61,584 nucleotides of DNA from Candidatus Endomicrobiellum porotermitis (lineage in GTDB: Bacteria; Elusimicrobiota; Endomicrobiia; Endomicrobiales; Endomicrobiaceae), in contig JAITQE010000023.1 of assembly GCA_031289055.1 (NCBI GenBank), positions 1 through 61,584 of the forward strand. Reading direction: 5' to 3'. The position numbers and the translations under genes were made by a program. Below are positions 1-12,411 of the stretch, piece by piece. Under the pieces are notes generated by a model, which was not told the origin of the DNA, made no database searches, and saw only the letters and a program-made list of their open reading frames with translations. Position 1 is the stretch's first letter. Each line of letters begins with the position of its first letter.

Positions 1-1
1 T

Positions 2-2876
2 GTTCTGACGGTACTAAAAAATTGAATTTGTTATAATCATCCACCGACTGGGATGAGATGGACGACGGTTCTGACGGTACTAAAAAATTGAATTTGTTAT
101 AATCGCGTTGCCCGACTTGACGCGGCGACGGCAGTTCTGACGGTACTAAAAAATTGAATTTGTTATAATTCCCCAACTTTTGCATGCCATTACCGGTCTG
201 TTCTGACGGTACTAAAAAATTGAATTTGTTATAATTGACGTGACGGTTGAATTAATCATATCAATGTTCTGACGGTACTAAAAAATTGAATTTGTTATAA
301 TAGACGTGTGCAAAAGCCTATCGCCCGACGTGTTCTGACGGTACTAAAAAATTGAATTTGTTATAATAGAATAGATTTAAAATCAACCAACAAAAAAGTT
401 CTGACGGTACTAAAAAATTGAATTTGTTATAATATGGCATACGCATACTCCGCAGATAAATATGTTCTGACGGTACTAAAAAATTGAATTTGTTATAATT
501 CCCAGTTTGCTTGTATATATAGTCGGTTAGTTCTGACGGTACTAAAAAATTGAATTTGTTATAATAATGAACGACATATTGACGCGCGTCGTAGAGTTCT
601 GACGGTACTAAAAAATTGAATTTGTTATAATGGCAAAACGTCGTCGCATATCGGTTTGACAGTTCTGACGGTACTAAAAAATTGAATTTGTTATAATCGC
701 AATAAAGGACATGTGGCCTTACCTGCAGTTCTGACGGTACTAAAAAATTGAATTTGTTATAATAATACAAAGAAAGAAGTAAAAGAAGAAGTTGTTCTGA
801 CGGTACTAAAAAATTGAATTTGTTATAATTCCCAACTCGCGCGAATTTGCCGACGACGCGTTCTGACGGTACTAAAAAATTGAATTTGTTATAATTTCGT
901 AATTTGCGTGATATCTGTGGCATTGGGTTCTGACGGTACTAAAAAATTGAATTTGTTATAATATCCTTTACAAGCATACTATTATATAAATTGTTCTGAC
1001 GGTACTAAAAAATTGAATTTGTTATAATATTGTCCTTCAACATGAAATGGCAGGGCGTGTTCTGACGGTACTAAAAAATTGAATTTGTTATAATTTTCTC
1101 GGTAATAACAACTCGCGTAAATCTGTTCTGACGGTACTAAAAAATTGAATTTGTTATAATAAAGTATCATTTTTTTTCGCGCGGCTTCTGGTTCTGACGG
1201 TACTAAAAAATTGAATTTGTTATAATAATTTTGCTGAGCAACGGATGCGAACGTTGGTTCTGACGGTACTAAAAAATTGAATTTGTTATAATTCAAAAAG
1301 TTTTTTCTCTTTCAAAGACAGCGTTCTGACGGTACTAAAAAATTGAATTTGTTATAATTCCTTTTAGAGCCATAAGAGATTGGTGGAAGTTCTGACGGTA
1401 CTAAAAAATTGAATTTGTTATAATAAAGCAGACGCAAAAAACGATTACCGCGCAGTTCTGACGGTACTAAAAAATTGAATTTGTTATAATAACGATTTAT
1501 TTTATCGGTCTTGAGGATAAGTTCTGACGGTACTAAAAAATTGAATTTGTTATAATGCTCGTCTTCAAGTTTGGTCACGTGCGACAGTTCTGACGGTACT
1601 AAAAAATTGAATTTGTTATAATGTGGTTGAATGAGCGACAATGCCCTCTAAAGTTCTGACGGTACTAAAAAATTGAATTTGTTATAATTGCGTAAAGCGC
1701 TCTTGCAAATGACCGAGTGTTCTGACGGTACTAAAAAATTGAATTTGTTATAATGTTCGCGTAAATATATCCGTTAAAAAAACAGTTCTGACGGTACTAA
1801 AAAATTGAATTTGTTATAATAAACCCGCAAAGATGTAAAATTTCGGACCTGTTCTGACGGTACTAAAAAATTGAATTTGTTATAATAGTCAATATTAATA
1901 TCGTAATCGTCAATCGGTTCTGACGGTACTAAAAAATTGAATTTGTTATAATAACGCGATAATTTTTTTCATAGCATATTTCGTTCTGACGGTACTAAAA
2001 AATTGAATTTGTTATAATGTTGGTAAAATTGATTGCGGAGTTCGGCGAGTTCTGACGGTACTAAAAAATTGAATTTGTTATAATTGTTTATTTGGATAAA
2101 AATTGTCCGATGAAGTTCTGACGGTACTAAAAAATTGAATTTGTTATAATTTAAATAATCCAGTTTAAATTTCTGCCATTGTTCTGACGGTACTAAAAAA
2201 TTGAATTTGTTATAATTTTAAAATTAGTCAAAATGTTGCACGATTTGTTCTGACGGTACTAAAAAATTGAATTTGTTATAATTTCAGAATTTTTGTTATC
2301 TTCCAAACCAATGTTCTGACGGTACTAAAAAATTGAATTTGTTATAATAATGTTTATTGAAAAAGTTAATCCGACTGAGTTCTGACGGTACTAAAAAATT
2401 GAATTTGTTATAATCGCATTTTAATTCAAATATCGGGGCTGGATGTTCTGACGGTACTAAAAAATTGAATTTGTTATAATGTGACGATTGCCATACTTGC
2501 CGCGTTTTCGGTTCTGACGGTACTAAAAAATTGAATTTGTTATAATAAAAAGTTTTAGCGTTATGTTTAATTGTTTGTTCTGACGGTACTAAAAAATTGA
2601 ATTTGTTATAATCCGTTATGGTTTCAAAATAATTTGTCGACTGTTCTGACGGTACTAAAAAATTGAATTTGTTATAATTATTCTTTTCAAGATGCGAGAT
2701 GCCAGAAAGTTCTGACGGTACTAAAAAATTGAATTTGTTATAATAACATATCCAAAATTTCCTTTGAAGAAAGCGTTCTGACGGTACTAAAAAATTGAAT
2801 TTGTTATAATCGTCTACATCGTTATATCTAATTGGCTTTGGTTCTGACGGTACTAAAAAATTGAATTTGTTATAAT
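2..2876 (+). CRISPR. Type II-C CRISPR array, 44 repeats
   Basis: There are 44 direct repeats of 36 bp. Each starts GTTCTGACGG and ends TTTGTTATAAT. The 43 spacers are 30 bp, except the one at 896-926, which is 31 bp. Repeat starts are 2, 68, 134 ... 860, then 927 ... 2841, a 66-bp period. Every repeat I checked is identical, including the last one next to the tracrRNA, so no degenerate terminal repeat is visible. The array starts at the window edge and may extend left, so its left flank cannot be judged. The + orientation is assigned because the anti-repeat downstream pairs with this strand, and because the 3' end of each repeat is an extended -10 promoter (TG-T-TATAAT), as in Neisseria type II-C arrays. 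I noticed no duplicated spacers. Apparent minus-strand reading frames through the array are repeat artefacts. Confidence 0.98.
2868..2876 (+). promoter_or_regulatory. Extended -10 box in each CRISPR repeat (last copy shown)
   Basis: The last nine bases of every repeat read TGTTATAAT, a perfect extended -10 element. Transcription would start about 7 nt into the following spacer, giving a crRNA of spacer followed by the next repeat. No good -35 hexamer lies at 17 bp, as expected for extended -10 promoters. The copy shown is in the final repeat. It has no downstream repeat and would instead read into the tracrRNA gene. Promoter-bearing repeats are known from type II-C systems of Neisseria and Campylobacter; activity here is inferred. 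Confidence 0.7.
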
Positions 2877-2914
2877 AGGATTCACTCTTAAAAGCGTTAA
2901 AGTACGTATAAGTT

Positions 2915-2943
2915 TTGCAAAAAGGTTACAAATTTTGTAAAAT
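2915..2943 (+). promoter_or_regulatory. tracrRNA promoter
   Basis: A -35 TTGCAA at 2915-2920 and a -10 TAAAAT at 2938-2943 are separated by exactly 17 bp. The predicted start at about 2950 coincides with the first base of the 21-nt anti-repeat. Seen directly in the sequence; activity is inferred. Confidence 0.7.
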
Positions 2944-2949
2944 TCTTCT

Positions 2950-3040
2950 AAATTCAATTTTTTAGTACCGCCTCAACTAAAGTTAAGACTGTTTTGCCTC
3001 TACATCAAAAGTACGCAAAACAGATCTTAATCGCAAACTT
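2950..3040 (+). ncRNA. tracrRNA for the type II-C system
   Basis: Positions 2950-2970 are a perfect 21-nt reverse complement of the inner part of the CRISPR repeat. After this, CC-TCAAC at 2971-2977 can pair with the 5' GUU of the repeat across an internal bulge, the usual crRNA:tracrRNA duplex shape. Next comes a tiny AAC-UAAA-GUU hairpin (nexus-like, 2975-2984), then a strong stem. Its arms are TTAAGACTGTTTTGC (2983-2997) and GCAAAACAGATCTTAA (3015-3030), about 15 bp with a one-base bulge. No clear U-tract follows, so the 3' end is uncertain. The gene lies between the array and the 3' end of cas2, convergent with cas2. Its role is to pair with crRNA and load Cas9. Confidence 0.8.
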
Positions 3041-3395
3041 ACCAAAATTGTAATTGTTCGCTTATGTTGTCTTTGTTATCTATTTGGCGAGCTTTTTTTT
3101 CTTTTGCTTTACTAATTGTTATACATTCTTCCCACTGTGTGTCCGTTATGAAATAACATTGTACATTTCCAGTAGTCGGAGCAATTTTTTTAATGTCGCT
3201 TATAAAACCTTTCTTCTTATCTAAAATCACAGCACATCTAGCATAAACAGAATACTGAAGCATTAAATAACCCAAATCTAGAAGCCCATTTCTAAATTTT
3301 GTTGCTTGATGCCTTTCATCTTTTGTGTCTGTAGGTAAATCAAATAATACAATAAGCCATCCCATGCGATATCTGCTTATATTTTTATTCTTCAT
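3039..3395 (-). CDS. cas2: CRISPR-associated endonuclease Cas2
   Basis: This 118-aa protein is of normal length for type II Cas2. It has the ferredoxin-like start with WLIVLFDLPT, in which Asp19 is the conserved acidic residue after strand beta1. Cas2 dimers bridge two Cas1 dimers in the spacer integration complex. The gene overlaps the end of cas1 by 11 bp and is the last gene of the cas9-cas1-cas2 operon. Its 3' end runs towards the tracrRNA. The C-terminal part is Lys-rich. No csn2 or cas4 follows, which fits subtype II-C. Confidence 0.95.
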   Translation of the reverse strand: MKNKNISRYRMGWLIVLFDLPTDTKDERHQATKFRNGLLDLGYLMLQYSVYARCAVILDKKKGFISDIKKIAPTTGNVQCYFITDTQWEECITISKAKEKKARQIDNKDNISEQLQFW

Positions 3396-4299
3396 TAAAT
3401 TTTATCGTCTCTAAAGATGGTATATAAAGATTATTTAACGTTTTGGTTCTAAAGCATGATGAAAATGACGTTATGTATTTTTCTATAGCAAGATTGAAGC
3501 TAACGTTTTTTGAACCAAATATGTTTATTTTTGAAAAAACAATATCTTTGGCGGCAAATTTTACCCATTCGTTTATTTGTTTACGCATATTTGCCTGTCT
3601 AAAACGTAATAACATAAAATCACAAAAAGGACGCAACGGTTCCATAATGTCATAAACTAAAGGATCGGATCTAAATCTGTATTTATGATAAATACCAATA
3701 GCAGGATTAAAGCCATGAACCAATAATAGTCTATGACACATAGCAGCTATTACAGCGTACCCATAATTTAACATACCATTTATTGGATCTTCAGCTCCTT
3801 TAGTATTTCTATTCCCAGGAGATAGTCTTCCAAATCTTTTAAAATAATGCTTCCAGTAATGTCTTGCGGCATTGCCTTCGTCTAAATTATCAATTTTAAT
3901 ATATTCCCAGAGTTTATGATTAGCGGAGATGTGATCTAAGATATAAGCTTGATTTTTTATCTTTGACAATATGATTTTATCCCACATCTGCTTAAGATAA
4001 AAAATATCCTGATGTATATTTATATCTATAAGTTCATTATGAACAACCCTGTGCAACCCCACCGTTTTTCCAATCGGTTTATAGTTATGATCACAGTGTA
4101 ATACAATACTGTTATGTCTCAATAATGCAGATAAGCATTCAGCTGAAAAACCAATGCCTTTTGCAGCCACTATAACAGCAAGAATATCATCCAAAGGCAC
4201 TCGTCTTGAAGGTTTCCCATGAATATTGCAAACTAAACAACCTCTATCAACGGATAATCTGCTTGAATGATTTAAAATATGAATTATATGATAGCTCAT
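3385..4299 (-). CDS. cas1: CRISPR-associated integrase Cas1
   Basis: This 304-aa protein is a type II Cas1. It integrates new spacers at the array as Cas1-Cas2. The expected metal-binding residues are present: Glu141 (EGNAARHYW), His205 (GIYHKYRF) and Glu220 (YDIMEP). The start codon overlaps the cas9 stop as ATGA, so translation is coupled. The gene looks intact, so adaptation could still work. The identical repeats of the adjacent array are compatible with recent activity, although spacer turnover cannot be seen from one sequence. Confidence 0.96.
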   Translation of the reverse strand: MSYHIIHILNHSSRLSVDRGCLVCNIHGKPSRRVPLDDILAVIVAAKGIGFSAECLSALLRHNSIVLHCDHNYKPIGKTVGLHRVVHNELIDINIHQDIFYLKQMWDKIILSKIKNQAYILDHISANHKLWEYIKIDNLDEGNAARHYWKHYFKRFGRLSPGNRNTKGAEDPINGMLNYGYAVIAAMCHRLLLVHGFNPAIGIYHKYRFRSDPLVYDIMEPLRPFCDFMLLRFRQANMRKQINEWVKFAAKDIVFSKINIFGSKNVSFNLAIEKYITSFSSCFRTKTLNNLYIPSLETIKFNEE

Positions 4300-7200
4300 T
4301 GTTTTTTATAAGTGGTCATACCGCATTGCTCTAAAAATATTTCTATATTTTCCGTTAGTGTTTTTTGAGTGTTTAGGTTTTCAATTTTACACCTGCCGCT
4401 GCTACTTATAAGAGTCCTAAGCTTATAAACTCCTTTCTGAATATCTTTTCCTTTCTGAATATCTTTATAATTTTCCTTGATCTCTACTAATTGCCCAGAT
4501 CTAAAAAATTCAACTCTTTTATACTTATCTGTATATTCTTTTCTTTTAATATAAACAGACTCAAACACGTAAATAGGAGCTACTCTCCATTTATCCTTTT
4601 CATCTTTATAAACAATTTGTCCTTGGTGGCTATCTTTTCCCTTGATCCACTGCCCCTTTACTGCGCCTTTATCTCCATATTCCCCTATTACATTATTGAT
4701 AGCGCCATCGGAATTAAAAACTTCAGATTCTTTGAATGCTTTAGAATCTATTATGGCTATTTTTTTGATTCTTTTATAATTGCCAGTATAATCTTCAAGA
4801 AACTCTTCCCACTTTTTTTGAGTAAGATTTTCTTCATTGAGTTTTTTCTGAAAATCTCTTTTTATTTTCAAATCAAATATGTAATCAATATTTTTTCTTG
4901 CACATTTATCATTGCTTTTGCTACCTTCTAAAAGTTTAAAATTACAAATTGATGAATCAAAATGGGAAACAAAATAATACTTCTTTTCAACCTTATTTGT
5001 TTTCTCATCTTTTTCCAATCTACATCTTAATCCGTAAATTGTTTCTCTCAATTTAGGGGTAACCCGTTTAATTGTTTTAGGATATACTTTATTTATTTCA
5101 TTTTCACAAAATTCCTTATTAAAAAAATCAGGTTTTTCTTTTACTTTTTTGAAATTGAGTTTTATTTCAGGGAGAACGCTTAATACAAGAGCGTCTAACG
5201 CATGATGCCTCTTGTTTTTTCTATTTTTATCTTTAAAATCATCGCTTTGTTTAGTCTTTTTGTATTCTTCATCCGTAAGATCTGCAAAAAGTATTCTGTT
5301 AAGCTCAAGATTCTTCCTTACACTTGCAGTTTCAGCTCCTGTATAAAATAAAATCTTTTTCTCATCATCCTTTGTATTTAGTCCCCAACCAAAATATAAT
5401 GAAGACAAATATTGAGCATCTTTTTCTATATAGGATGTTGCCTGCAAATCAGTTTTTCTACTATTAAGCTCAATAGCTTTATCAGATATCAGAAGATTGA
5501 CCTTATTTTTGCTGTTTTTATCCTTACCAAAAATTTCATTAACATTTTTAAAATAAGTATCCCAGTCTTCAGATCTCTTTTTATGAAACCATTCATAAGG
5601 AGTTAATCCCCCTTTATCTTGATTAAATTCTCTTTTTGTTAATATAAGATTAACCAGAGAGTCTGAACCGTTTCTTTCTCTTGGAACAATATGATCAATT
5701 TCATATTGATCAAGTTTGGAAATAACTATATTTCTGTTCTCTGTAGTATCATATATATCTTTGCCTTTTTGTCTTATATACAATCTTGCCCGTAAAATAT
5801 TCGTATCATTAATGCATATCTTATTTTCCAAAAGTTTTTTTGCGTCCGTAATTTCTTTTTTGTTGTCATTTTGAAAACTTTTATATTCAGCTTTTTTCTT
5901 CTCGCCAATAAAATCTTCTCTAGCAATTTCAAAAATAATCTTTTCAGGTTTTCCAAATCTTTTATCCAATTCTTCAAGTTTTGATTTTAGAATCAAAAGT
6001 CTATGACGCACAATCCTGTTAGATATACTACCTATAATCTTATCTATTTTTTCTAAGGACTGCTCTTCGGTCAGATTTTTATCTTCGTCTCTTGTATCAG
6101 GAATACTTATAGAATCCCAATCATTTGGCATATTTAATAGAAAACTATAATCTTTCTCAACTAATCCTTTGGATGTATCTGTATTCTTGTTCGTACTTAC
6201 AAGTTTTTTATAATAGTCACGCGGGTTTTCTCCTGAAAGAATCAAACCATGAAGAATATTAAGCGCAGGTTTACAAAAACTACTACGTCCAGATAATTTG
6301 GGCTGAGGTATAGAAGTCTGATTAGGGTTTACTTCTCCGCCCAAAGAACTAATATATTTTTTCCAGTTTCTTGCATTAACCAACGCTTTTTCTGTTTTTT
6401 GTTCATCTGTCTTAAGGTTACTTTTGTATTTCTCAAAAATATCTTTAATTTGTTCATGAGATAACGATTTTGAAGTATTTTGTTCCGAAGCATATCTCAT
6501 ATTTTTTAATTCCAACAAAAAAGTGACTTCTTTATTTAAGAGCTTTTCTGCCTTACATACGTTTAATCTAGGTATAAGTTTGCATTTTGATATTATGCGA
6601 TTATCAAACCTTGGCACTTTTTGTCCTAATAATCCTTGCCAATCCCATTCTGTCCCTCTATGTTTAAAATATTTTGGATTTTTAAAAGAAGCATACGGCT
6701 CTTTTGACGGACCATAAATAATATAATCTTCTCTCCCTTTAAGTTTTGGAAATTGTTTTGCAGCATTCACAAGCAATGCCTTTAACTCATTATATACAAG
6801 TTCCCTTGACGGAACGGCGGATTTATCTTTATTCCTAGACGGTTCAGGGTTTTCTTTAAGCTTTCCTTTTAAATTTTTTGGATCTTCCGGCGACCATATA
6901 CCTTGTTTATATGCTTCATAATAACACGGATAATAATACTCTTTTTTATCACCAAAGGATTTTTCCAATCTCTTATCATATTCATTAGAGGCATCTTCAT
7001 TTTCTTTCTTATCACTGTCAGTTGCCCATGGTAAATGTGAATCGTATCCTCTTCTTTGTATTGCCGACTTTATGGCTTTAAAAACTTGCCAGCCTTCCAA
7101 TTTTACATTTTGAAGTAAGGCTATTCTTAATAGGTGTGAAGAATATATAGTTTTATCATCAGTATTTGCTGAAGGAAACTCTCTAAGCATTTTTAAATCT

Positions 7201-7469
7201 GGTTTAAGACTTGGATTTTCTTTTGTCGGCTGCGCGGTTGACAATACTTCTATTTCCGCTTTCTTAGCTTCTTGTATCCACCATTCTTCCCTTTTCTTAT
7301 GCGCAACTCTCGTTCTTATTTGTCTGCGACGCTTTGAGGCATCTGTTACTGATGCATAAGTCGCTTCAATAAGTAAAGAATCCAAATAAAGTATTTCCCT
7401 TCCCTTTCTTACGCAGACTCCAATACTGCCAGAACCTAAATCAAATGCAAAAACAAGATCGTTTTTCAT
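4296..7469 (-). CDS. cas9: CRISPR-associated endonuclease Cas9, type II-C
   Basis: This 1057-aa protein is the RNA-guided DNA nuclease, of the compact size typical of subtype II-C. RuvC-I is FAFDLGSGSIG with Asp10. An Arg-rich bridge helix follows at about residues 45-70. RuvC-II is IIFEIARED with Glu514. The HNH motif is EIDHIVPRE with Asp592 and His593, then Asn607 and Asn616 at the expected spacings. RuvC-III is HHALDAL with His756 and Asp759. All catalytic residues of both nuclease sites are present, so it should be active. A good ribosome-binding site (AAAGGAG) lies 8-9 nt before the ATG. The gene leads the cas9-cas1-cas2 operon. The C-terminal region (about 900-1057) would hold the PAM-interacting domain and is not recognisable by eye. 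The PAM cannot be predicted here. Confidence 0.97.
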   Translation of the reverse strand: MKNDLVFAFDLGSGSIGVCVRKGREILYLDSLLIEATYASVTDASKRRRQIRTRVAHKKREEWWIQEAKKAEIEVLSTAQPTKENPSLKPDLKMLREFPSANTDDKTIYSSHLLRIALLQNVKLEGWQVFKAIKSAIQRRGYDSHLPWATDSDKKENEDASNEYDKRLEKSFGDKKEYYYPCYYEAYKQGIWSPEDPKNLKGKLKENPEPSRNKDKSAVPSRELVYNELKALLVNAAKQFPKLKGREDYIIYGPSKEPYASFKNPKYFKHRGTEWDWQGLLGQKVPRFDNRIISKCKLIPRLNVCKAEKLLNKEVTFLLELKNMRYASEQNTSKSLSHEQIKDIFEKYKSNLKTDEQKTEKALVNARNWKKYISSLGGEVNPNQTSIPQPKLSGRSSFCKPALNILHGLILSGENPRDYYKKLVSTNKNTDTSKGLVEKDYSFLLNMPNDWDSISIPDTRDEDKNLTEEQSLEKIDKIIGSISNRIVRHRLLILKSKLEELDKRFGKPEKIIFEIAREDFIGEKKKAEYKSFQNDNKKEITDAKKLLENKICINDTNILRARLYIRQKGKDIYDTTENRNIVISKLDQYEIDHIVPRERNGSDSLVNLILTKREFNQDKGGLTPYEWFHKKRSEDWDTYFKNVNEIFGKDKNSKNKVNLLISDKAIELNSRKTDLQATSYIEKDAQYLSSLYFGWGLNTKDDEKKILFYTGAETASVRKNLELNRILFADLTDEEYKKTKQSDDFKDKNRKNKRHHALDALVLSVLPEIKLNFKKVKEKPDFFNKEFCENEINKVYPKTIKRVTPKLRETIYGLRCRLEKDEKTNKVEKKYYFVSHFDSSICNFKLLEGSKSNDKCARKNIDYIFDLKIKRDFQKKLNEENLTQKKWEEFLEDYTGNYKRIKKIAIIDSKAFKESEVFNSDGAINNVIGEYGDKGAVKGQWIKGKDSHQGQIVYKDEKDKWRVAPIYVFESVYIKRKEYTDKYKRVEFFRSGQLVEIKENYKDIQKGKDIQKGVYKLRTLISSSGRCKIENLNTQKTLTENIEIFLEQCGMTTYKKQ

Positions 7470-11602: not shown

Positions 11603-12411
11603 TGCAATTTTGTCTTTAAAGTCTCAAAATAAGATTTACTACGATTTTTTATAAGCTTTAATGGTTTTTTATAGAGAGCAAACTTTACGATAGAACCGTT
11701 GAGCAAAGTGTAATTTTCCTGACCGTCTATTGATATCATAATTTTGCCAGACCCGTACTTATTTTTGGCAGCAAAAGAGACGCGACTCTTGTCAGACAAT
11801 ATCATAGGTCTCTGCGTTAATGTGTGAGGCGAAATAGGCGTAAGAATGAACACAGGTATATTAGGATAAACTATAGGTCCCGAAGCGGCTAGAGAATAAG
11901 CCGTTGAGCCTGTCGGCGTAGATATAATCATTCCGTCGCATTTATATTCCGCAGTGAAATCTTTGTCTATATTAACATCAACAGTAATGAGTTTCCCCCC
12001 TGTTAAAGAACGAACTACGCAGTCGTTTGCGGCTATTGTTTTTATTTTCTTGCCGTTATATGCAAATTCAACCGATAACAAAATTCTTTTTTCTATTTTT
12101 AAACCCGAAAAAAACAAATTTTTTAAGAAATCAAAAACTTCATTTGCGTCAGTATCGGTTAAAAATCCAAGAGAGCCGAGATTTATGCCTTTTACAGGCA
12201 CGGACAAAGGCGAGAATGTCCTTATAACTTTCAGCATTGTGCCGTCGCCGCCGATAGATAGAACAAAATCAAATTTTTTGGGTTTTACGGACATGGAATC
12301 GTTTAAAAATACTTTACACTTGTTCTCTTTAAGTCGCGTCGCAATCTCAAGAGCAAGTTTTTTAGCGCTCGCTTTAGACTTGTTATAAATAACGCCGGCA
12401 TTATATTTCAT
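11590..12411 (-). CDS. nadK: NAD kinase
   Basis: This 273-aa enzyme phosphorylates NAD+ to NADP+ in the cytosol. The diagnostic GGDGT is at residues 54-58 (LSIGGDGTMLK). The conserved NADP-site segments are present: GINLGSLGFLTD, the acidic CDGMIISTPTGSTAYSLAASGP, and the C-terminal LSPHTL-like patch PISPHTLTQRPMI. The length fits the family. It is the first gene of the nadK-recN operon and is divergent from the penicillin-binding protein gene. The -10 box lies 6 nt before the ATG (see the promoter entry). Confidence 0.95.
   Translation of the reverse strand: MKYNAGVIYNKSKASAKKLALEIATRLKENKCKVFLNDSMSVKPKKFDFVLSIGGDGTMLKVIRTFSPLSVPVKGINLGSLGFLTDTDANEVFDFLKNLFFSGLKIEKRILLSVEFAYNGKKIKTIAANDCVVRSLTGGKLITVDVNIDKDFTAEYKCDGMIISTPTGSTAYSLAASGPIVYPNIPVFILTPISPHTLTQRPMILSDKSRVSFAAKNKYGSGKIMISIDGQENYTLLNGSIVKFALYKKPLKLIKNRSKSYFETLKTKLHWSI

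What the first reader, a model, noticed from the sequence alone, without database searches (positions are those of the whole stretch)
2..2876. Every CRISPR repeat carries an extended -10 promoter
All 44 repeats end in TGTTATAAT, a better -10 match than the known Neisseria TGCTACAAT. Each spacer may be transcribed independently, so crRNAs could form without processing. The array is very uniform and long for a reduced genome.
Basis: partly seen in the sequence, partly recalled or inferred. Interest (0 to 1): 0.6.

Follow-up and report, generated by a model that had tools for sequence, protein, structure and literature searches.

The report
CRISPR repeats carrying their own promoters
Each repeat of this bacterial CRISPR-Cas9 array ends in a near-perfect promoter element, so each stored phage memory is probably transcribed from its own start; this is a known trait of type II-C systems, here shared by relatives in several phyla.

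Summary
The window has 44 identical 36-nt repeats (2-2876), every one ending in TGTTATAAT, a perfect extended -10. The array continues on another contig of the same genome: 74 identical repeats, 73 spacers in all. It belongs to a cas9-cas1-cas2 locus with a tracrRNA just downstream on the same strand.

The promoter reading is well supported by comparison, not shown by experiment. Of 58 distinct type II repeats collected, 43 carry a -10 (5-6 of 6) at the 3' end (shuffles: mean 3.6, maximum 10), although their bodies differ. It was absent from 5 of 5 II-A-like arrays. The oldest repeat decays in its first half (46 mutations) and spares its last (1; none in the last 9 nt). No sense-strand promoter was found upstream of the array.

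Repeat-borne promoters are already published for type II-C (C. jejuni, by transcript mapping). "Without processing" goes too far: the 5' end needs none, but the 3' end would still need an RNase III/tracrRNA cut, and RNase III is encoded.

One arrangement I did not find described: the newest spacer lies directly upstream of the co-directional tracrRNA with no terminator between them, so read-through would give a natural single-guide RNA. Ordinary member of a known kind.

The parts
2..2876 (+). CRISPR array: 44 identical 36-nt repeats and 43 spacers; the 5' part (30 more repeats) lies on contig C25
29..37 (+). TGTTATAAT extended -10 at the 3' end of the first repeat in the window; the same in all 44
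2868..2876 (+). TGTTATAAT of the last (newest-side) repeat; would fire into the leader and tracrRNA
2877..2949 (+). 3' leader; starts AGGATT as in relatives; no terminator-like element
2915..2943 (+). promoter-like site TTGCAA-17-TAAAAT just upstream of the anti-repeat: candidate tracrRNA promoter
   Evidence: p 0.135 against shuffles for this leader alone
2950..2977 (+). anti-repeat of the tracrRNA, pairs with repeat positions 1-28 (21 nt exact, positions 8-28)
2950..3035 (+). tracrRNA (end inferred), with a hairpin at about 2984-3031
   Evidence: no Rfam match
3039..3395 (-). cas2, 118 aa
3385..4299 (-). cas1, 304 aa, type II kind
4296..7469 (-). cas9, 1057 aa, HNH and RuvC_III domains; NCBIfam label Cas9d

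Best explanation
This is a type II-C-like CRISPR-Cas9 locus in an Elusimicrobiota (Endomicrobium-type) genome. Each repeat ends in a sigma70 extended -10 element, so RNA polymerase starts inside each spacer, about 5-8 nt downstream of the repeat. The transcript is the remaining roughly 24 nt of spacer plus the next repeat. tracrRNA pairs with the 5' part of that repeat, RNase III trims the 3' end, and Cas9 takes up the guide. Because new spacers are added at the 3' (tracrRNA-side) end, far from any upstream promoter, each new repeat copy brings its own. Shown here: the element, its conservation across repeats with different bodies, its sparing in decayed oldest repeats of relatives, no sense-strand promoter-like site upstream of the array, and sigma70 and RNase III genes in the genome. 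Inferred: actual initiation, start site, processing, direction of acquisition.
For: 44 of 44 repeats end in TGTTATAAT. 43 of 58 distinct type II repeats from the phylum and from Cas9 relatives have a 5-6 of 6 -10 within 3 nt of the 3' end (30 perfect TATAAT, 29 with TG); composition shuffles mean 3.6, maximum 10 over 200 rounds; inner placements 14 of 290; the opposite repeat end 0 of 58. 10 of 13 clusters with different bodies keep it at the exact 3' end (representatives). It is absent in 5 of 5 II-A-like arrays, 2 of them with csn2 annotated. The anti-repeat spans repeat columns 7-28 in over 90% of 50 arrays but columns 34-36 in 22, 12 and 4%, so base pairing with tracrRNA does not explain the conserved end. 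Lightly mutated oldest repeats: 15 arrays, 46 mutations in positions 1-18, 1 in 19-36, 0 in the last 9 nt; sign test p = 0.001. No sense-strand promoter-like site lies between tRNA-Gln and the first repeat. RpoD keeps the residues aligned with E. coli H455 and E458 (their role in reading TG is recalled). RNase III scores 236.9 bits. Published precedent: C. jejuni starts at spacer position 5, repeats ending GGTAAAAT (PMC3656092, passages).
Against: No transcript data for this organism. TGNTATAAT is not enriched in the rest of the window and 1 of its 6 copies is intergenic, so its promoter use in this genome is unproven. RpoD differs from E. coli at the residue aligned with T440 (N). 15 of 58 distinct repeats lack the element, including relatives ending GTTTCAAT and GTTTTAAT and several Verrucomicrobia. 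Of three other plasmid type II arrays examined, two (Pontibacillus, Tistrella) lack it. No purine bias at the expected start positions in 72 spacers. Among 10 heavily mutated oldest repeats, 5 have changes in the last 9 nt (L164 has 7). Repeats are related, so counts are not independent.
Confidence: 0.85

Rival explanations
1. The conserved 3' end of the repeat is an integration signal for Cas1-Cas2, and its likeness to a -10 box is secondary; the array is transcribed from elsewhere.
For: Repeat ends are where new spacers are joined, and both ends of the repeat are conserved (columns 1-3 fixed in 38 distinct repeats).
Against: The variation at the end follows the -10 pattern: third base of the hexamer free, second base A and last T kept. 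Some repeats carry the -10 three bases inside the end (GGTAGAATTTA family), which an end signal would not do. The oldest repeat, no longer an integration site, still keeps its 3' half. II-A-like repeats lack it.
Confidence: 0.08
2. A single promoter upstream of the array makes a long pre-crRNA and all ends are processed.
For: This is how II-A arrays work (PMC3656092, passages). Transcription from the tRNA-Gln gene could run on into the array: no strong terminator was found between them.
Against: No sense-strand promoter-like site in the 281 nt scanned around the array's 5' end. In 55 arrays the best upstream promoter score is close to shuffles (8.0 against 7.6; 8 of 55 at p<0.05). The 5' end of the array looks like the old end in relatives.
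Confidence: 0.06
3. The -10 likeness is a by-product of an AT-rich genome.
For: The window is AT-rich; TATAAT occurs 111 times outside the array on both strands.
Against: Composition-matched shuffles of the repeats give 3.6 hits on average against 43 seen, and the opposite end of the same repeats gives 0 of 58; GC-rich Verrucomicrobia repeats still end in TACAAT or TAGAAT.
Confidence: 0.01

Closest known systems
Campylobacter jejuni type II-C CRISPR-Cas9 (PMC3656092, passages read)
   Same: cas9, cas1, cas2 only; tracrRNA; each repeat ends in an extended -10 (GGTAAAAT); crRNA starts mapped inside each spacer; one RNase III cut at the 3' end.
   Different: Array far longer here (74 against 4-8 repeats in the strains of that paper's Table 1); perfect TATAAT; different Cas9. 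Starts are measured there and only predicted here.
Neisseria meningitidis type II-C (cited in PMC7038990; the primary paper was not read, details recalled)
   Same: Extended -10 at the repeat 3' end, initiation from each repeat.
   Different: Repeat and Cas9 differ. The tracrRNA is not at the array's 3' end there (recalled).
Type II-C arrays of Endomicrobia (PMC11257099, passages)
   Same: 11 type II-C systems reported in this bacterial family.
   Different: In the passages I read, repeat sequence and transcription are not discussed.
Type II-D / Cas9d (PMC12669027, PMC9755519, passages)
   Same: NCBIfam model NF049971 'Cas9d' scores this Cas9 at 897 bits (cut-off 375).
   Different: No cas4 beside it; best-scoring solved structures are Cas9 chains of about 1050-1150 aa, none named Cas9d among the 60 shown; 1057 aa against 747 aa for the solved Cas9d (PMC11706934, abstract in listing).

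Membership tests
Type II-C CRISPR-Cas | cas9, cas1, cas2 and no csn2 or cas4 in the locus | tested here: met
   the only Cas4 family hit in the genome is a 29.5-bit match in a 484-aa frame on another contig
Type II-C CRISPR-Cas | tracrRNA with anti-repeat near the array | tested here: met
Type II-C CRISPR-Cas | spacers acquired at the 3' (downstream) end, oldest repeat at the 5' end | tested here: inconclusive
   In this array no repeat is degenerate. In relatives the first (5') repeat is mutated in 29 of 57 arrays, while 3' copies are almost all intact. Near-duplicate and 6-nt spacers lie in the 5' part.
Type II-C CRISPR-Cas | promoter in each repeat, start inside each spacer | not testable with these tools
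   the sequence element is present; transcription was not measured
Type II-D (Cas9d) | effector in the Cas9d clade | tested here: inconclusive
   NF049971 897 bits, but the family-profile search of the PDB lists no chain named Cas9d among the 60 shown of 90; no tree with reference Cas9s was built
Type II-D (Cas9d) | adaptation module with cas4 next to cas1 and cas2 (PMC12669027) | tested here: not met
   no cas4 in the locus
Type II-A | csn2 in the locus | tested here: not met
   no open frame for csn2 between cas2 and the array, or next to cas9

The most novel reading that the evidence does not exclude
Because acquisition appears to happen at the 3' end and the tracrRNA lies 27-101 nt beyond it on the same strand with no terminator between, the promoter of the last-but-one repeat would make, by read-through, spacer-repeat-leader-anti-repeat-tracrRNA as one molecule: a natural single-guide RNA that always carries the newest spacer. 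This could load the newest memory into Cas9 in cis and so give it a priority that equal per-repeat promoters would otherwise not provide. The array-then-tracrRNA order is seen with several repeat families, in Elusimicrobiota, Gastranaerophilales/Vampirovibrio and Verrucomicrobia.
Probability: 0.2. Interest if true: 0.65.

Novelty: new member of a known kind. Interest (0 to 1): 0.28.

Why it matters
It extends repeat-borne promoters to a Cas9 lineage labelled Cas9d by NCBI and to uncultured bacteria of several phyla, with a test based on decay of the oldest repeat that separates promoter from crRNA function. If the read-through single-guide RNA is real, these arrays would have a built-in way to favour the newest spacer, and natural single-guide scaffolds could be read straight from the DNA. 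As a finding about promoters in repeats alone, it confirms what is known.

Tried and rejected
Composition by-product: rejected by shuffles and by the opposite repeat end. Purine preference at +1 in spacers: none seen. Genome-wide use of TGNTATAAT as evidence: no enrichment in the window, so not used as support. Upstream leader promoter: none on the sense strand; flanks of 55 arrays close to shuffles. Intrinsic terminator upstream of the array: not found by rule, and folding was no better than shuffles. Protospacers: 2804 nt of the array (window 37-2840) against 50,697 phage records gave one 30-nt match at E 0.07, not credible; the repeat and two of 73 spacers searched exactly in IMG/VR gave nothing. 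Rfam: no CRISPR or tracrRNA match. Second array in the same genome as an internal control: the C14 contig ends in the leader and a solitary repeat lies on C12, so no array was available. Structure prediction was not run; it would not bear on the question. Rows dropped: from the array set I left out arrays with consensus length other than 35-37 nt, N-masked stretches, the type I-C repeat, and loci L014 and L033 (covered by longer loci); 87 oriented arrays became 73 unique (repeat plus leader) and 58 distinct repeats. 32 of the 79 loci gave no array to my finder. Of 8 further plasmid loci fetched as outside cases (besides the own-genome locus L190), three (L183, L184, L186) gave no array. One array (L126) was oriented the wrong way by the script and counts among the misses. 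The shuffles are single-base shuffles.

Full report
What is there. The window is the whole of contig C10 of a 1.04 Mb, 92% complete genome. Its first 2876 bases are a CRISPR array of 44 identical 36-nt repeats, every one ending in TGTTATAAT. The array does not start there: contig C25 overlaps it by about 118 bases and adds 30 further identical repeats, up to about 80 nt from a tRNA-Gln gene. In all there are 74 repeats and 73 spacers, with two near-duplicate spacers (8, 9) and one 6-nt spacer (14) in the 5' part. Downstream on the same strand comes a 73-nt leader and then a tracrRNA whose anti-repeat (2950-2977) matches repeat positions 1-28. cas2, cas1 and cas9 follow on the opposite strand. 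Titles of close relatives name Endomicrobium (Elusimicrobiota).

Is it more than chance? One repeat ending in a perfect extended -10 has a chance of about 4e-5 per position and strand in this window; the 44 copies are not independent. I therefore collected other type II arrays: stretches of up to 20 kb around Cas9 hits in 340 Elusimicrobiota genomes (19 over the family cut-off) and 79 named loci of Cas9 relatives. 73 unique arrays gave 58 distinct repeats. 43 of 58 have a -10 with 5-6 of 6 matches within 3 nt of the 3' end; shuffles of the same repeats give 3.6 on average, at most 10; inner positions 14 of 290; the opposite end 0 of 58. Clustered by body alone, 10 of 13 representatives keep it at the exact end. 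Some GC-rich Verrucomicrobia repeats still end in TACAAT or TAGAAT, though others from that group end in CAGAAT or CAAGAT, which miss the threshold. Five of five II-A-like arrays (two with csn2 annotated) lack it; of three other plasmid type II arrays, one has TGGTATAAT and two lack it.

Why a promoter. The anti-repeat spans columns 7-28 of the repeat in over 90% of 50 arrays, and columns 34-36 in 22, 12 and 4%, so pairing with tracrRNA does not explain the conserved end. The oldest repeat gives a cleaner test: its 5' half is in no useful crRNA, and its 3' half is useful only if it drives spacer 1. In 15 lightly mutated oldest repeats (1-6 changes), 46 changes fall in positions 1-18 and 1 in 19-36, none in the last 9; internal repeats show 14 and 9 changes over 1220 copies. 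Ten heavily mutated ones show the same trend with exceptions (L164 has lost the 3' end; five of ten have some change in the last 9 nt), and in these a breakpoint inside the repeat could also explain the pattern. Feussner et al. report the same 5' clustering in 364 II-C arrays and note that the first repeat needs to stay a promoter (PMC12080349; outline, two sections and passages read). No sense-strand promoter-like site lies between tRNA-Gln and the array. The genome's RpoD aligns with E. coli RpoD with H455, E458, Q437, W433 and W434 kept and T440 changed to N (the roles of these residues are recalled).

How it most likely works. RNA polymerase starts 5-8 nt into each spacer, leaving about 24 nt of guide, and runs into the next repeat. 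tracrRNA pairs with that repeat and RNase III (present) cuts. C. jejuni works this way by transcript mapping: starts at spacer position 5, repeats ending GGTAAAAT, one RNase III step (PMC3656092, passages). C. cellulolyticum (PMC7038990) and Flavobacterium columnare (PMC8092290) give further cases (passages).

Subtype. The gene set is that of II-C. NCBIfam calls the Cas9 'Cas9d' (897 bits against a cut-off of 375), but there is no cas4 beside it, and a profile of 13 family members finds Cas9 structures of about 1050-1150 aa best, with no chain named Cas9d among the 60 shown of 90. I call it II-C-like and leave the clade open. The HNH and RuvC motif residues (such as H593 and D759) are invariant, and D10 nearly so, in the alignment.

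What may be new. In 52 of 70 arrays an anti-repeat lies on the same strand within 150 nt of the array's 3' end at p<0.01; on the opposite strand 3 of 70; upstream 2 and 12 of 48 (some of the upstream hits are leftover repeats). The window (anti-repeat 74 nt on) is a further case not counted in the 70. Leaders also hold a sigma70-like promoter next to the anti-repeat (mean 9.2 of 12 against 7.5 shuffled; 16 of 52 at p<0.05; the window's own p is 0.135), often TATAAT with TG in front, and no terminator-like element (0 of 51). So the tracrRNA probably has its own start as well, but the transcript that starts in the newest spacer can also run through repeat, leader, anti-repeat and tracrRNA: a single-guide RNA in natural order. 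Folded, the window's version gives -65.5 kcal/mol, z -7.7, as the long repeat:anti-repeat helix demands. Seven loci with other repeats (L058-L063, L072) have the -10 or a near match but no anti-repeat there, so the two traits are separable. Searches for natural single-guide RNAs and for arrays reading into tracrRNA listed no paper whose title or abstract start describes this; I saw listings only, apart from PMC12080349. I rate it possible (0.2), with no direct evidence of such a transcript.

Limits. No RNA data; repeats are related, so counts are not independent events; orientation was set by the repeat's first bases; the sample is centred on relatives of this Cas9 and on one phylum.

Noticed in passing
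L009 (contig C25) 1-2072, minus strand: The array continues on a second contig: 30 more identical repeats, near-duplicate spacers 8 and 9, and a 6-nt spacer 14, ending near a tRNA-Gln gene.
   Followed up: yes
L057 (contig C14 of the same genome) 1-5316: A second type II locus in the same small genome: cas9 (about 1183 aa), cas1- and cas2-like frames and a tracrRNA-like stretch resembling the GTTAGGG repeat family; the contig ends in the leader, so its array is not resolved.
   Followed up: partly
L190 (contig C12) about 1501-1535: A solitary CRISPR-repeat-like sequence of the GTTAGGG family, ending in TAAAAT, outside any array.
   Followed up: no
window 4296-7469: NCBIfam labels this 1057-aa Cas9 as Cas9d (II-D), though the locus has no cas4; the model also passes its cut-off in 18 other Elusimicrobiota genomes of 340.
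   Followed up: partly
L100: A contig titled Clostridioides carries a Cas9 69% identical to the window's and nearly the same repeat: probably an Endomicrobium contig with a wrong label.
   Followed up: no
L086 about 11768-11803: One exact repeat copy in inverted orientation just beyond the array.
   Followed up: no
L077, L075: Two Elusimicrobiota type II repeats without a -10 at the 3' end (ending CAATGACT and AAACGGTTT), with an anti-repeat still downstream: natural exceptions worth RNA mapping.
   Followed up: no
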